Assembly (NCBI GenBank): GCA_016763185.1
Contig: JAESUG010000204.1
Coordinates: 1 to 42,944, forward strand
DNA: 42,944 bases
Source: Robiginitomaculum sp.
Lineage (GTDB): Bacteria; Pseudomonadota; Alphaproteobacteria; Caulobacterales; Maricaulaceae
Direction of reading: 5' to 3'
Part shown: positions 9,530-40,398 of the stretch, in pieces
How positions within the stretch are numbered: position 1 is the stretch's first letter
Layout: each line of letters opens with the position of its first letter
Translations under genes and position numbers: made by a program
The notes under the pieces: model-generated
The model's input: only the letters and a program-made list of their open reading frames with translations
Told to the model about the DNA's origin: nothing
Database searches by the model: none

Positions 9530-10904
9530 AACACACATCGCGCACCGCTTGGGCAATCCGCTGTGGGATTGGCATGGCCAAGGCTTCCAAATTCGCAGCA
9601 TAGGCCAACGGTGCTTCGACCTGATGAACCCGTTTCGGCGGTGCATCTAAGTCGTCAAATGCCTGCTCGGTAACCATGGCAGCAATTTCAGCACCGATCC
9701 CCATCCGGCCCCAACTTTCTTCAACGGTGACCAAGCGGTTGGTTTTGCGCACTGATGTCAAAATGGTATCGCAGTCCAAGGGGCGAATGGTTCGCAAATC
9801 AATCACCTCTACTGAAATGCCCTCATTGGCCAGAATTTCAGCAGCAGCCAATGAAAACCCAACCATTCTTGAATGGGCGGTAATGGTGGCATCCGTGCCA
9901 GTACGCCGCACCAGTGCTTTGCCAATGGGAACCAGCCAATCATCAACCGCCGGTACATCAAACACTTCGCCATACATCAGCTCGTGTTCCAAGAACACCA
10001 CAGGGTTCGGATTGCGAATGGCCGATTTAAGCAGGCCTTTGGCATCGGCGGCATCATAAGGGGCAAGCACGATAAGGCCCGGCACATGCCCATACCACGG
10101 GGCGTAATCCTGACTGTGTTGGGCGCCAACGCGGCTGGCGGCCCCATTGGGGCCACGAAACACAATGGGACAGGCCATTTGCCCGCCGGACATATATCTG
10201 GTTTTTGCGGCTGAATTAATGATGTGGTCCATCGCCTGCATCGCAAAGTTAAACGTCATAAACTCGACAATGGGCCGCAAGCCAGCAAACGCAGCCCCCA
10301 CGCCTAATCCGGCAAATCCATGTTCGGTAATTGGAGTGTCAATTACCCGGCGGGCGCCAAATTCTTCGAGCATGTCGCGGCTGACTTTGTAGGCACCTTG
10401 ATATTGCGCCACTTCCTCGCCCATCAAAAATACGTCATCGTCGCGGCGCATTTCTTCGGCCATCGCATCGCGTAAGGCATCGCGGATACTGGTGGCAATC
10501 ATTTCGGTGCCCGCCGGAATATCGGTTTCCGGTGGGGTTCGAGCGGTGGCCACAGCAATGGGGGTTAGCTCGGCAGCGGGTGCGTTTGCCTCAGGTTCCG
10601 GTGCGGGTGTGGGTTCAGGTTTGGGTTCAGGTTTGGTTTCCATCTCGGTATCCGCATCGTCGCCCTCTTCGAGCAAAATCGCAATCACCTTATTGACCAG
10701 CACATTTTCGGAACCACTGGGCACCAGAATTTTGCCCATCACCCCTTCATCCACGGACTCGATTTCCATCGTGGCTTTGTCGGTTTCGATCTCGGCTAAA
10801 ATATCGCCCGAACGGATTACATCGCCTTCGGCCACCAGCCATTTGGACAAAGTGCCCTCTTCCATGGTCGGGCTAAGCGCCGGCATTAAAATTTCAATCG
10901 CCAT
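9522..10904 (-). CDS. pdhB: Pyruvate dehydrogenase E1 beta with N-terminal lipoyl domain
   Basis: A 460-residue protein. The ATG at 10904 is preferred to the TTG just before it because AGGAA lies 6 nt upstream. Residues 1-80 are a lipoyl domain (Lys43 in [11 protein letters not shown]), followed by a Glu/Pro/Ala linker to about residue 130 and then a transketolase-type E1-beta domain ([43 protein letters not shown]). The lipoylated E1-beta layout is characteristic of alphaproteobacterial pyruvate dehydrogenases. With PdhA it forms the thiamine-diphosphate-dependent decarboxylase. The stop overlaps the start of the GFA-family gene. Confidence 0.96.
10771..10880. repeat. Lipoyl-coding direct repeat, copy in pdhB
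   Basis: This is the partner of 8992-9101. It covers the start of the E1-beta lipoyl domain and includes the lipoyl-lysine codon region. Confidence 0.85.
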
Positions 10905-14658: not shown

Positions 14659-15981
14659 TTAATTCGATGCATGTAGTCGATCGTTTTGGCGAAAATACTC
14701 ATCAACGGCATCGCCGACCGCATTGGTTATTTTTTTAATATACCGCGCTTTATTCAAATTAGCTTCATCGTGCTTATTCGATAAAAATCCCATTTCAATC
14801 AACACCGCCGGCACATCTGGGGCCAGCAATACGAATAAATTTCCATCACGGTGGCTATTGCGGACCAACGGTCCAGCTTTGGCCAGTTTTGGGATGAGTA
14901 TTCCAGCAAACACCGCCGATTGATTTTGAGTTTGGCGTTGGGATAAGTCAAACAAGATATCACTGACCTCTGGCCGTGACACGGCCAAATCCACATCAAT
15001 CAGCCAATTGCTGCCCTTTAGGATTTCAGGGCGCGAACGGCCACTGGCCCGTTCTGCTAGGGTGTAGACGGAGGCACCTCTGGCCTTGGGGTTGCTTGCC
15101 GAGTCTGCGTGCAATGATATAAATAAATCAGCTTCATGTTGCCTGGCAATTCTCACCCGGCCTTCTAGTTCAATAAATCGGTCGGTACTGCGGGTGAGGT
15201 GAACATAGTATTTTCCATTGCGTTCAAGCCGCTTCTTTAGGGCCAAGGCGGCTCTTAGATTAACGTGCTTTTCCCAAGTTTTCTTTACCTTGCCAATCGA
15301 TCCGGGGTCTTTACCACCATGGCCCGCATCAATCACAATCACCCGTTTTTCATTGGCATTATTGGTTTTGAGGGTTGGCGCTAAGGCCACAGCAAGTATG
15401 GGTTCCGCTGGGGGCGCGACTGACTTTGAGGCCATCGAAGGTAAAAATGGTTCGTCAAAACCAGAACCGGCAATAAAGCTAATTAAATCTGTTTGCTCCA
15501 GGTCAAACACCAACCGGTGCATTTTATAATCATGAGTTGGCGCTAGATAAAACTCGCGGGCGATTTTAATCGGTCCAGCCAATTCAAACACCAAGCGCGA
15601 GGTTGCCGGCGAATTGGCAGCAAAGCGAAACCGTTGCACCATACCTTCGCCAACACCCTCACCTTGTTGAACTGCGAAGGTTTTATCAAGGTTCCAACCC
15701 AGTTTGGGAAAATCCATCACCAATCGAGCGCCCTGGCTGGCCAAGGTAAACCAACTATATTCTTGTTTGTTATCAAACTCGATGACAATACGAGTTTGCT
15801 CAACCGTGCCGGAAAACCGAACCGCTTGCACCTCGTCTGCGGCGGCATGTATTGAGCTAACCCCCCATACCAACAAGGATATAGCGAACAACCAACAACT
15901 AAAATTTCTAGAAACAAACAATGATACGGTTCCGTGAATGCTATTTGTGGATAGGTTAATCAAGAAGTCTAGCACAAGCAT
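14659..15981 (-). CDS. amiC: N-acetylmuramoyl-L-alanine amidase, AmiC type
   Basis: A 440-residue periplasmic amidase that cuts the bond between muramic acid and the peptide stem at division. Order: signal sequence (hydrophobic 30-46), AMIN domain (about 50-165) that targets peptidoglycan or septum, linker, and the Amidase_3 domain from about 213. Zinc ligands fit VIDAGHGGKDPG (His221), Glu237 and LHADSA (His291); the catalytic Glu lies in LIEMGFLSN. The hydrophobic segment starts late from the ATG at 15981, so initiation may be downstream (for example the TTG at 15921). Divergent from rne, a common alphaproteobacterial pairing; the usual downstream mrcA (PBP1A) gene is missing and a repeat cluster occupies that place. 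Confidence 0.92.
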   Translation of the reverse strand: MLVLDFLINLSTNSIHGTVSLFVSRNFSCWLFAISLLVWGVSSIHAAADEVQAVRFSGTVEQTRIVIEFDNKQEYSWFTLASQGARLVMDFPKLGWNLDKTFAVQQGEGVGEGMVQRFRFAANSPATSRLVFELAGPIKIAREFYLAPTHDYKMHRLVFDLEQTDLISFIAGSGFDEPFLPSMASKSVAPPAEPILAVALAPTLKTNNANEKRVIVIDAGHGGKDPGSIGKVKKTWEKHVNLRAALALKKRLERNGKYYVHLTRSTDRFIELEGRVRIARQHEADLFISLHADSASNPKARGASVYTLAERASGRSRPEILKGSNWLIDVDLAVSRPEVSDILFDLSQRQTQNQSAVFAGILIPKLAKAGPLVRNSHRDGNLFVLLAPDVPAVLIEMGFLSNKHDEANLNKARYIKKITNAVGDAVDEYFRQNDRLHASN

Positions 15982-16222
15982 GTTGACGATTGGTTGATTG
16001 TGCTAACTTTTACATTTGGGTCTTTTCAATTGCGATAGCATAGTGCATGTTACGGTCATTCGGAATGTTGATTTGCATATTTCTGGGATGAGCAGGTTTC
16101 CTGCCCCTAAGAGATGCAAGTACCCGTAAACTGGCCAGATGTTTTTTGCTCTGCAAATGAAGGTACTGGTCACAAATTTTTCAACCGCTTTGCGGCTAAA
16201 TAAAACCCGACCGATACCGGGC

Positions 16223-16289
16223 ATTGTAGAAATACCGTAGAAATACCATTGTAGGAATACCACCGTAAAAATACCATTATAGGAATACC
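16223..16289 (+). repeat. 14-nt tandem repeat upstream of rne
   Basis: Copies are at 16223-16236, 16248-16261, 16262-16275 and 16276-16289, with an 11-nt shortened copy at 16237-16247. Typical units read ATTGTAGGAATACC and ACCGTAAAAATACC. The array ends 158 bp before the RNase E start codon. Confidence 0.85.
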
Positions 16290-16325
16290 CCTAATCATGT
16301 TTCTGTCCCTTGTTCGACCCATAAT

Positions 16326-16362
16326 ACAACCATCGGGCGCGTCTTTATTCGCGCCGGGTTGT
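16326..16362 (+). promoter_or_regulatory. Hairpin in the probable rne leader
   Basis: Two stacked stems pair ACAACC with GGTTGT and GGCGCG with CGCGCC around an 8-nt loop (TCTTTATT). It lies 85 nt before the start codon. RNase E regulates its own mRNA through leader hairpins in E. coli; the same role here is inference. No T-run follows, so it is not a standard terminator. Confidence 0.5.
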
Positions 16363-16447
16363 GGATGGTTCACAAACAACAGAACCCAAATATATAGCCC
16401 CTTGTCACGCCCCATATGGGCGGGCGCAACGGGCGAAGAGAGAATTT

Positions 16448-19078
16448 ATGACAAAAAGAATGTTAATCGACGCCGCCCATCCCGAACAAACACGGGTGGC
16501 CATTGTTGACGGAAATCGAGTTGAAGAATTTGATTTCGAATCACAAAGTAAAAAACAATTAAGAGGTAATATTTATCTGGCCAAAATAACCCGGGTTGAA
16601 CCGTCGTTACAGGCTGCCTTTGTTGACTATGGCGGCAACCGCCACGGATTTTTAGCTTTTAACGAAATTCACCCGGATTATTATCAAATCCCTGTGGAAG
16701 ATCGTGCCAAATTACTGGCTGCTGAAGCGGCTGAAGCTGCTATTGAGTCTGAGGCTGACGAGTTGGAAGCAACGGACGAAGTCATCGACGAAGATGCTGA
16801 ACACGATAATACTGCCCAAGATGCCAGCACGGTTGAAGAAGAGGAAATCGCACAAGAAGCTATAAAACAACGCGAAAAACGCCGCCATAAGAATTATCGG
16901 CGCTATAAAATCCAAGAAGTAATCAAACATGGTCAGATCATGTTGATACAAGTGGTCAAAGAAGAACGCGGCACCAAAGGCGCGGCCCTTACCACATATA
17001 TGTCCCTAGCCGGTCGATATTGCGTGTTGATGCCAAATACCGCCAAGGGCGGCGGAATTTCACGAAAAATTTCAAATGCAGCGGACCGCAGTCGACTAAA
17101 AAGCATTACCAGTGAATTGGAAATTGCCCCCGGTATGGGGTTGATTATTCGTACAGCGGGCTCCAAACGCAACAAAACTGAGATCAAGCGCGACTATGAC
17201 TATTTATCCCGATTATGGGGTACCATTCGCGACAATACCCTAAAATCCACGGCACCATCATTGGTTCACGAGGAAGGCGGTCTGGTTCGGCGTGCTGTAC
17301 GAGATTTATATGACAAGGACATTGAATCAGTCCTCGTCGAAGGCGAAGTAGCGTTTAAAGAAGCCAAAGAATTCATGACATTGCTCATGCCATCACACGC
17401 ATCAAACGTCATTCATTATCAGGAAAAATACCCGATATTCCTGCGCTATCAAGTCGAAGATCAGCTTGAAACCATCCACTCACCAGAAGTTCAGTTAAAA
17501 TCTGGCGGCTATTTGGTCATCCACCAAACCGAAGCTTTGGTGGCGATTGATGTCAACTCTGGCCGAGCCACACGAGAGCGCAATATTGAAACCACTGCCG
17601 TTAAAACCAACCTAGAAGCCGCCGATGAAGCTTGTCGTCAAATGCGATTGCGCGATTTGGCCGGCCTGATTGTGATCGACTTCATCGACATGGAGGAGAA
17701 CAAAAACAACCGAGCCGTCGAAAAGCGCATGAAAGACGCGCTAAAACGGGATCGAGCTAGAGTTCAAGCGGGCCGGATATCGATGTTTGGCTTGTTTGAA
17801 ATGTCACGGCAACGCCGCCGGGCCTCCGTCATTGAGGGCACCAGTCAAACGTGCCCAACATGTAATGGCTTAGGTGTGGTTCGCTCAATCGAATCCAGTG
17901 CCTTGACTGCCTTGCAAGCTCTAGAATCCGAAGGCATGCGTAAACGCGCCAAATCGATAAAACTAACAGCACCGTCCGCGGTCGCGTTGTATATTTTAAA
18001 TGAAAAGCGCACCCAGGTGGCCGAAATCGAAGCGCAAGCAAGCATGCGGGTTATCGTTGAAGCTGACCCGAACATGCACCCACCCATGCATGAAATCGAA
18101 GTTCTGGATATGTTGCCAAACGGTGGCAAATCAGAAACAACCAGCGCGAAAGAGCCGTCAAATCGTAAAGGCCGAGCTAGCCGCAAACCAAAGAAAACGC
18201 CAGATCAACCGGCAAGCGACAAGCCAGCCGCAACCCCTGATGAGACAGACAGCGCCGAAACGCCAAAACGTCGCCGCCGGGGTCGCCGTGGTGGCCGCGC
18301 CCGTGGCAAACCAGATGCAGATCAGATTGCGGCAACCGGTATAGAACCCGAAGTAACATCGAACGAAACCCCCAACACATCTTCAGATGTCTCGCCTATA
18401 ATAGCGAAAGCTGGCACCGATGAACCCGGGCCAAAACGCCGTGTGCGCCGCAAACGTAAATCAGCCAATGCTGATGACGAAACACAGATCACACCGCAGG
18501 CCGCCTCTACAGATAAGGTTGCAGCCGAAACCGCCCAGCCATCAGATAAACCAACACGCCCAAAGCGCATTCGTCGCTCCAAACGGCCAGAGACTAGCCC
18601 ACCCGTCTTGGTGGTCGAAAACACAGCTGAAGAAACACCCTCGCCGAGTAAACCGAGCCGGCGTGTTCGAAAACGTGCGACAACAGCAGAGAAGCCAAAT
18701 GCGCCATCGAAGGTCACACCATCAGAAGCACCATCCGTTGACCCGACACCGGCAAAGCCAACCCGCCGAGTTCGAAAGCGCCCAACAAAGGAAACGTCGG
18801 TAACGGCTGAAACACCCAAAAAACCAACCAAAAAACCGGCAACGCGTAAAGCAACACCCAAAGCAAAACCGGCAACCAAGGCGCCAACACCATCGGCACG
18901 CAAAGTCAGGACTCGCAAAAAACCCGTTGCAGAGGTTGCCGTTAAGCCCGCTGCCAAGCCAAAGAAGGCGACACCTAAACCCGCAGCCGCTGTTGAAGCG
19001 GTGAAAAGCGAGGTTACTTCGAAAAAAACCAAACGTAGCTGGGCTAGTCGAATTTTTGGAGATGGCGAAACAGAGTAA
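16448..19078 (+). CDS. rne: Ribonuclease E
   Basis: An 876-residue endoribonuclease and degradosome scaffold. The start is the ATG at 16448 (MTKRMLID), after GAGAG. The S1 domain (about 38-180) is split by a Glu/Ala/Asp-rich insertion (about 90-140). Catalytic Asp368 (AIDVNSGRATRERN) and Asp411 (VIDFIDME) are 43 residues apart, as in E. coli Asp303/Asp346; the Zn-link CPTCNG (Cys469, Cys472) has matching spacing. From about residue 560 the protein is a low-complexity Lys/Arg/Pro/Ala tail with at least five arginine-rich motifs of RRVRKR type, probably binding RNA. The C-terminus has a short tryptophan-containing motif (KRSWASRIFGD), possibly a PNPase-docking site. Divergent from amiC. Confidence 0.97.
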   Translation: MTKRMLIDAAHPEQTRVAIVDGNRVEEFDFESQSKKQLRGNIYLAKITRVEPSLQAAFVDYGGNRHGFLAFNEIHPDYYQIPVEDRAKLLAAEAAEAAIESEADELEATDEVIDEDAEHDNTAQDASTVEEEEIAQEAIKQREKRRHKNYRRYKIQEVIKHGQIMLIQVVKEERGTKGAALTTYMSLAGRYCVLMPNTAKGGGISRKISNAADRSRLKSITSELEIAPGMGLIIRTAGSKRNKTEIKRDYDYLSRLWGTIRDNTLKSTAPSLVHEEGGLVRRAVRDLYDKDIESVLVEGEVAFKEAKEFMTLLMPSHASNVIHYQEKYPIFLRYQVEDQLETIHSPEVQLKSGGYLVIHQTEALVAIDVNSGRATRERNIETTAVKTNLEAADEACRQMRLRDLAGLIVIDFIDMEENKNNRAVEKRMKDALKRDRARVQAGRISMFGLFEMSRQRRRASVIEGTSQTCPTCNGLGVVRSIESSALTALQALESEGMRKRAKSIKLTAPSAVALYILNEKRTQVAEIEAQASMRVIVEADPNMHPPMHEIEVLDMLPNGGKSETTSAKEPSNRKGRASRKPKKTPDQPASDKPAATPDETDSAETPKRRRRGRRGGRARGKPDADQIAATGIEPEVTSNETPNTSSDVSPIIAKAGTDEPGPKRRVRRKRKSANADDETQITPQAASTDKVAAETAQPSDKPTRPKRIRRSKRPETSPPVLVVENTAEETPSPSKPSRRVRKRATTAEKPNAPSKVTPSEAPSVDPTPAKPTRRVRKRPTKETSVTAETPKKPTKKPATRKATPKAKPATKAPTPSARKVRTRKKPVAEVAVKPAAKPKKATPKPAAAVEAVKSEVTSKKTKRSWASRIFGDGETE

Positions 19079-40213: not shown

Positions 40214-40398
40214 CGGTTGAAAAAAGTGTTGGCCTCCTCTTGCGACAGCGTAAAGAGCACGACAACTTAAAGAGCATGCACACTTAAAAATCACAACTTC
40301 GTGATAGAATTTGAGAATGCTTGTAGTGCCTTGATCCAAGAATAGACCATACATGCAAACACTTGCTTATAGGAGCAAGATCTTTGTAAGGAATTCAA
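40214..40398. other. 185-bp leader region of the outer-membrane protein gene
   Basis: It contains a 17-nt imperfect tandem repeat (AAAGAGCACGACAACTT at 40252-40268 and AAAGAGCATGCACACTT at 40269-40285). A small hairpin, CTTGCT-TATAGG-AGCAAG (40362-40379), lies just before the ribosome site AAGGA (40388-40392). TAGAAT at 40305 could be a -10 box but no good -35 is visible. Confidence 0.5.

What the first reader, a model, noticed from the sequence alone, without database searches (positions are those of the whole stretch)
16223..16289. 14-nt tandem repeat in the probable RNase E leader
Four full units and one shortened unit of an A/U-rich, near-regular sequence lie 158-225 bp before the rne start. 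RNase E prefers single-stranded A/U-rich sites and regulates its own mRNA in E. coli, so the array could be a cleavage or sensing platform. Two units also contain UAGGA, which resembles a CsrA-type site.
Basis: partly seen in the sequence, partly recalled or inferred. Interest (0 to 1): 0.55.

Follow-up and report, generated by a model that had tools for sequence, protein, structure and literature searches.

The report
Repeat beside hidden RNase E frame
A short DNA repeat in front of the gene for an RNA-cutting enzyme looks like a multiplied ribosome-landing site of a small reading frame that overlaps the start of that gene, an arrangement found in most of the related bacteria sampled.

Summary
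The array is real: 16222-16289, units 14-11-14-14-14 nt plus C; 0 of 1000 shuffles score as high. It is private to this genome: absent from the other 49 order-level rne leaders scanned. Its neighbourhood is the finding. The last unit supplies a Shine-Dalgarno (AGGA, 16281-16284) for a 70-codon uORF (16297-16509) that runs out of frame across the rne start (16448). That frame is open at least 100 nt upstream of rne in 50 of 50 order-level genomes (this one included) and 68 of 80 named Alphaproteobacteria. Within the genus stops are avoided in it although the peptide is not conserved. A hairpin ends 4-9 nt before the uORF Shine-Dalgarno in 15 of 15 measured relatives; here the gap is 60 nt, or 7 nt without units 1-4. 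So the array is best read as a tandem expansion of the uORF ribosome-binding site. CsrA was not found; an RNase E platform is possible but unsupported. Ten paper searches showed no report of an rne uORF. Best inference: uORF translation restrains RNase E synthesis; the sign of that effect is untested.

The parts
16222..16289 (+). tandem array (14-11-14-14-14 nt + C)
   Evidence: paired-unit pattern only here in own genome
16206..16221 (+). hairpin H1 (CCCG..CGGG), 4-bp stem, abutting the array; positional counterpart of the hairpin found 4-9 nt before the uORF Shine-Dalgarno in relatives
   Evidence: covariation of the counterpart in relatives
16253..16256 (+). AGGA in unit 3, a second Shine-Dalgarno-like copy
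   Evidence: sequence
16281..16284 (+). AGGA in unit 5, proposed uORF Shine-Dalgarno, 12 nt before its ATG; aligns with GGA of relatives (11-12 nt spacing in clade A)
16297..16509 (+). uORF, 70 codons plus stop, out of frame with rne (offset 151 nt), stop inside rne
   Evidence: conservation
16448..19078 (+). rne (RNase E) from its ATG
   Evidence: Rne/Rng family TIGR00757 and PF10150 above cut-off
16022..16047 (+). promoter-like conserved block CTTTTC-N13-TAGTGCA
   Evidence: 18 of 49 leaders, 1 of 49 reversed controls
16329..16372 (+). predicted hairpin inside the uORF (approximate limits)
   Evidence: single-sequence fold of 16200-16470; overall z only -1.2

Best explanation
FROM SEQUENCE COMPARISON: the array is best read as a lineage-private tandem expansion of the ribosome-binding-site segment (spacer plus Shine-Dalgarno) of an upstream reading frame (uORF) in the rne leader. 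The uORF overlaps the rne start out of frame and ends about 60 nt inside rne. An overlapping frame of this kind is kept in nearly all order-level and most class-level leaders sampled, while the peptide sequence is not. INFERRED: the act of translating the uORF, not its peptide, matters. Ribosomes that start on it run through the rne ribosome-binding site and stop 20-30 codons inside rne, so they compete with rne initiation and shield the leader from RNase E, setting a low, translation-coupled level of RNase E synthesis. The array moves the upstream hairpin from about 7 to 60 nt away from the uORF Shine-Dalgarno and adds one spare AGGA, which at most tunes uORF initiation.
For: Overlap frame open >=100 nt upstream of rne in 50 of 50 order-level genomes including this one (other frames 9 and 19 of 50) and in 36 of 38 leaders under 55% GC among the 110 (others 3 and 7). 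Without regard to openness, the ATG with the best Shine-Dalgarno 60-260 nt upstream lies in that frame in 38 of 50 order-level leaders (34 of the 38 open past the rne start) and 50 of 78 class-level ones; all ATGs there split 108/43/25 and 130/59/46 over the overlap frame, frame 0 and frame 2. ATG-to-ATG distance is constant: 151 nt in 7 of 7 and 130 nt in 9 of 9 leaders of two same-genus clades, ungapped in the aligned ones. Zero stops in the uORF frame in four clades, column-shuffle P 5e-5 and 6e-4 (genus), 0.029 and 0.0012 (two other groups); both other frames hold stops. Codon positions change equally, 199/204/194, so no sign of peptide constraint. Hairpin-to-SD gap 4-9 nt in 15 of 15 measured relatives, 60 nt here, 7 nt after subtracting the 53 nt of units 1-4. 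Two relatives carry other duplications just upstream of the uORF (L004 24-nt, L007 11-nt units).
Against: No expression or ribosome data. Per-genome openness is individually weak: P<0.05 in 20 of 110. The two non-genus groups were made of loci I picked for sharing this start distance, which conditions their P values; the genus clades leave out only L018. In L018 and L021 the conserved-looking RBS/ATG is in frame 0 and stops 27 and 102 nt before rne, although the overlap frame stays open there. Class-level frame 2 is often open too (49 of 80), partly because of high GC, and some Rhodobacteraceae, Ancylobacter and Xanthobacteraceae loci have the uORF in frame 2. Five of 80 class-level loci show no clear case. 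Repression is not shown; melting the uORF region also frees the rne RBS in silico, which would argue for activation, although native leaders hide that RBS hardly more than shuffled ones (mean z +0.5, n 20). Nothing shows that the array has any effect.
Confidence: 0.6

Rival explanations
1. The uORF activates: its ribosomes open leader structure so that rne can be initiated, or protect the long leader from decay.
For: Forbidding pairing in the uORF region lowers the cost of opening the rne RBS in 33 of 34 leaders.
Against: That result is expected whenever partners are removed; against shuffled leaders the native rne RBS is hardly more hidden (mean z +0.5, n 20, one outlier of +4.9). The uORF-frame stop lies 59-89 nt inside rne in 30 of 30 leaders, too far for ordinary stop-restart coupling (recalled).
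Confidence: 0.2
2. One reading: the array is an RNase E cleavage or sensing platform for feedback control.
For: A/U-rich (66%), predicted unstructured, next to a hairpin, in the leader of an enzyme that feeds back on its own leader in E. coli and probably Synechocystis (PMC10989929, passages).
Against: Absent from the other 49 order-level leaders scanned; no R-N-W-U-U match within the array.
Confidence: 0.1
3. The array is neutral slippage debris with no effect on expression, in a spacer that tolerates length change. This can hold together with the uORF reading.
For: Private to one genome; unequal units; other duplications just upstream of the uORF in L004 and L007; AGGA absent from units 1, 2 and 4.
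Against: The hairpin-to-SD gap is otherwise narrow, 4-9 nt in 15 of 15, suggesting that the spacing is usually constrained.
Confidence: 0.55
4. The uORF is the true start and a programmed frameshift joins it to RNase E.
For: The uORF frame runs open across the rne start in 17 of 17 same-genus leaders.
Against: No peptide conservation; the stop of the uORF frame varies from +59 to +89; the frame offset differs in some families.
Confidence: 0.03

Closest known systems
E. coli rne 5' UTR feedback element (Rfam rne5, recalled; Diwa et al. 2000 seen only as a reference)
   Same: Long leader before rne with hairpins; possible control of RNase E synthesis.
   Different: No Rfam match at gathering score in the window or in 20 related loci. 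The feature here is an overlapping uORF, which I do not recall for E. coli and did not test there.
rne-II RNA, Pseudomonadales (RF01756; PMC2864571, table passage)
   Same: Named after rne; structured element.
   Different: No match; other class of bacteria.
Synechocystis rne leader with U-rich RNase E site (PMC10989929, passages)
   Same: Leader-based control of rne.
   Different: Described as cleavage at six uridines plus premature termination; the terms uORF and small ORF do not occur in its main text.
Bacterial leader peptides and regulatory uORFs (e.g. peTrpL, PMC7298713, search listing only)
   Same: Small translated frame in a leader.
   Different: Here the peptide is not conserved and the frame overlaps the main start out of frame.

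Membership tests
Rfam rne5 / rne-II feedback leader | match to the family covariance model | tested here: not met
   window; at E<=5 gave only one unrelated chance-level hit; 20 of the 109 related loci held then
Rfam rne5 / rne-II feedback leader | RNase E lowers its own mRNA through the leader | not testable with these tools
   needs reporter or RNase E depletion
CsrA-controlled leader | CsrA encoded in the genome | tested here: not met
   0 of 21 genomes; own genome 93.6% complete
Regulatory uORF | start codon with Shine-Dalgarno in the leader, conserved | tested here: met
   exceptions L018, L021 by frame
Regulatory uORF | frame kept free of stops across diverged relatives | tested here: met
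   (two genus clades; two further groups picked for a shared start distance); L018 left out
Regulatory uORF | translated in vivo | not testable with these tools
   no ribosome profiling held
Sequence-sensing leader peptide (attenuator type) | conserved peptide sequence | tested here: not met
   codon positions 199/204/194; no Pfam family above its cut-off for 3 peptides
RNase E cleavage platform | single-stranded A/U-rich stretch | tested here: met
   (prediction only)
RNase E cleavage platform | cleavage motif (R-N-W-U-U, recalled) in the repeat | tested here: not met
   one match, overlapping the 5' border only
RNase E cleavage platform | in vivo cuts in the array | not testable with these tools
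   needs 5' end mapping

The most novel reading that the evidence does not exclude
Most Alphaproteobacteria set RNase E synthesis with an out-of-frame uORF that overlaps the rne start, a peptide-independent ribosome-traffic device that ties the level of the main mRNA-decay enzyme to translation capacity. It would be distinct from the hairpin sensor of E. coli, and this genome would be a natural experiment in which a repeat has moved the hairpin 53 nt away from the uORF.
Probability: 0.4. Interest if true: 0.8.

Novelty: new variant of a known kind. Interest (0 to 1): 0.6.

Why it matters
How Alphaproteobacteria control RNase E, their central mRNA-decay enzyme, is open as far as my ten searches of the held library show. 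A conserved frame overlapping the rne start gives a direct, one-codon experiment for that question, in laboratory model strains. It would also be a regulatory uORF kept for being translated and not for its peptide.

Tried and rejected
Interspersed repeat: not supported. The paired-unit pattern occurs only here in the own genome. The single unit with up to 2 mismatches has 3 hits in the array and 12 elsewhere (one with 1 mismatch), against 4 for the backward-read control; the other places were not read. Known RNA family: none. CsrA: not found. Sigma-70 scan of 15900-16500: 0 found, 1.5 expected. The terminator-like site on the minus strand at 16222-16205 is the H1 hairpin read on the other strand.

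Outgroup: 20 unnamed same-phylum leaders, presumed Gammaproteobacteria from their RNase E N-terminus, were fetched; the rne start was found in 13; frame 1 open >=100 nt in 7, frame 2 in 6, frame 0 in 3 of 13. This control is uninformative and I make no claim about other classes. Accessibility modelling did not decide the sign of uORF action. Structure of 16200-16470 is only slightly better than shuffles (z -1.2).

Mended on the way: one search showed minus-strand loci in the wrong orientation, redone. Two rne-start finders missed many loci; starts came from match coordinates. Searches scanned a wrong stretch of L006 (short contig); one search leaves L006 out (49 leaders).

The 54-locus hairpin statistic gives mean z -1.24 before the uORF (33 of 54 below -1) and +0.39 just after its ATG, but also -0.92 further upstream and -1.07 before rne; so hairpins are not unique to the H1 place. 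uORF starts were assigned by hand, and loci without a clear start were left out. (hairpin gaps) has no shuffled control. In one search the number of pairs changed on both sides (4) was reached in 20 of 500 shuffles, and further pair types (6) were below the shuffled mean (7.5).

Full report
THE OBSERVATION. The array stands at 16222-16289, units 14-11-14-14-14 nt plus one C. Its 28-nt form is the best-scoring tandem array of the window (98), and none of 1000 dinucleotide shuffles of the 466-nt intergenic region reached its lower 14-nt score of 73 (best 54). The two 28-nt halves differ at 2 positions, so the last step was probably a duplication of two units (inference). In the own genome the paired-unit pattern occurs only here. 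TRF on the 420 nt before rne in 50 order-level genomes (L006: 201 nt) finds this array in this genome alone, and only here does AATACC occur more than once.

WHERE IT LIES. rne (Rne/Rng family) starts at the ATG 16448; the matches of relatives begin at or within a few residues of the same place in most rows, and their leaders were read from there. On the other side lies a divergent frame ending at 15981 with an N-acetylmuramoyl-L-alanine amidase domain (PF01520). Comparing rne leaders of the same genus shows that the segment directly after the array, ending in ATG 16297, is conserved as a ribosome-binding site with a start codon. From that ATG a frame of 70 codons runs across the rne start, out of frame (offset 151 nt), and stops at 16509 inside rne.

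THE uORF IS CONSERVED AS A FRAME. The distance from the uORF ATG to the rne ATG is 151 nt in 7 of 7 leaders of one same-genus clade (L002-L008) and 130 nt in 9 of 9 of another (L009-L017); the 15 of these 16 that were aligned are ungapped there within each clade, while the leader upstream of the uORF has many gaps. The overlap frame is open for at least 100 nt upstream of rne in 17 of 17 genus and 13 of 13 further order-level leaders and 20 of 20 additional order-level leaders; the other two frames in 9 and 19 of these 50. Among 80 named Alphaproteobacteria (the best 80 of 584 hits) the numbers are 68 for this frame, 31 and 49 for the others. The order is probably Caulobacterales, because the uORF of a same-order leader (L030) is nearly identical to that of a named Caulobacteraceae genome (L036); this is inference.

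Three controls. First, G+C: among the 38 of 110 leaders under 55% G+C the overlap frame is open in 36, the others in 3 and 7. Second, without regard to openness: of all ATGs 60-260 nt upstream, the one with the strongest Shine-Dalgarno pairing lies in the overlap frame in 38 of 50 order-level and 50 of 78 class-level leaders (two of the 80 gave no ATG). ATGs as such are also more frequent in that frame (108 against 43 and 25; 130 against 59 and 46), so the Shine-Dalgarno adds only part of the excess. Third, shuffling alignment columns, which keeps relatedness and composition: zero stops in the uORF frame, with P 5e-5 and 6e-4 for the two genus clades and 0.029 and 0.0012 for seven Caulobacteraceae-like and five Sphingomonadales-like loci. 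The genus clades hold every same-genus leader but L018; the other two groups were made of loci picked for a shared start distance, so their P values are conditioned. Against all this: taken one genome at a time, openness is unusual (P<0.05) in only 20 of 110.

Exceptions. L018 and L021 have a conserved-looking ribosome-binding site whose ATG is in frame 0 and stops before rne. Of the 80 class-level loci 12 are not open in frame 1: L035, L083, L086, L087, L090, L091 and L104 have a frame-2 ORF overlapping rne instead; L040, L067, L072, L095 and L110 have no clear case. Some loci open in frame 1 still have their best start in frame 2 (for example L060).

THE PEPTIDE IS NOT CONSERVED. Changes between related uORFs fall equally on codon positions: 199, 204, 194 over the 21 pairs (of 36) of the 130-nt clade that differ by at most 30%, and 7, 14, 11 over 3 pairs (of 21) of the other clade; pairs are not independent. 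No Pfam family fits above its cut-off (3 peptides tried). Selection therefore looks to be on translation through the rne start, not on a product.

THE HAIRPIN AND THE ARRAY. In 15 of 15 measured same-genus relatives (L003-L017; L018 not measured) a hairpin with a 5-7 bp stem ends 4-9 nt before the uORF Shine-Dalgarno, with differing stem sequences. In eight of the nine sequences of the 130-nt clade (L013 left out) this helix and one before rne show changes on both sides (4 of 18 named pairs, as many in 20 of 500 shuffles; covariation score 0.171 against 0.112, 0 of 500 as high). In this genome the nearest hairpin (16206-16221, only 4 bp) is 60 nt away, and the array fills the gap; the 37-nt stretch ending 15 nt before its uORF ATG is unstructured (z +1.4). 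Removing units 1-4 (53 nt) gives 7 nt, the gap of L003 and L004, whose rne is closest (89% identity). The simplest history is that an ancestral spacer-plus-Shine-Dalgarno unit was multiplied, the last copy staying next to the start codon, with AGGA now only in units 3 and 5. L004 (24-nt unit) and L007 (11-nt unit) carry other small duplications just upstream of the uORF.

MECHANISM. From comparison: anatomy and conservation. Inferred: uORF ribosomes interfere with rne initiation and cover the leader. The uORF-frame stop 59-89 nt inside rne (30 of 30) makes stop-restart coupling unlikely. In silico, opening the rne ribosome-binding site is not specially hindered by the native leader (mean z +0.5, 20 leaders), so I favour interference over opening, but weakly. 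The array would at most tune uORF initiation by moving the hairpin away and adding a spare AGGA; it may well be neutral.

CsrA is not found in this or 20 related genomes. The array is A/U-rich and predicted unstructured, but the recalled RNase E motif R-N-W-U-U touches it only at the border, and the array is not conserved.

LITERATURE. Ten full-text searches of the held library brought no paper that, by its listing or the passages read, describes a uORF before rne. Passages seen: PMC10117765 (S. meliloti small proteome; the words rne and RNase E do not occur in its main text), PMC2864571, PMC5082802, PMC5472812, PMC6238624 (R. sphaeroides RNase E cleavage map; 12 of 16 places with the terms were shown, none on an rne leader), PMC10989929. 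Supplements could not be read, and subscription papers are mostly missing, so prior description is possible.

Noticed in passing
window 15983-15998: Direct repeat TTGACG-N5-TTGA between the amidase and rne, with counterparts in 17 of 49 order-level leaders and 0 of 49 reversed controls; possibly a promoter or regulator site.
   Followed up: partly
window 16022-16047: Promoter-like block CTTTTC..TAGTGCA, with counterparts 276-509 nt before rne in 18 of 49 order-level leaders, 1 of 49 reversed controls; not a sigma-70 consensus match.
   Followed up: partly
L060, L086, L087 upstream of rne: Rhodobacteraceae share a ribosome-binding site GGAGAAGAACCGCGATG with the uORF in frame 2, whereas L065, L075 and L082 have a similar start in frame 1: the overlap is kept while the frame differs.
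   Followed up: partly
L080, L092, L096, L098, L100, L106 upstream of rne: Six sphingomonad-like loci share CAGGTTGACG before the uORF ATG 208-241 nt upstream of rne.
   Followed up: no
window 10591-10640 and 40243-40288: Two further short tandem arrays (12-nt and 17-nt units, TRF scores 58 and 55).
   Followed up: no
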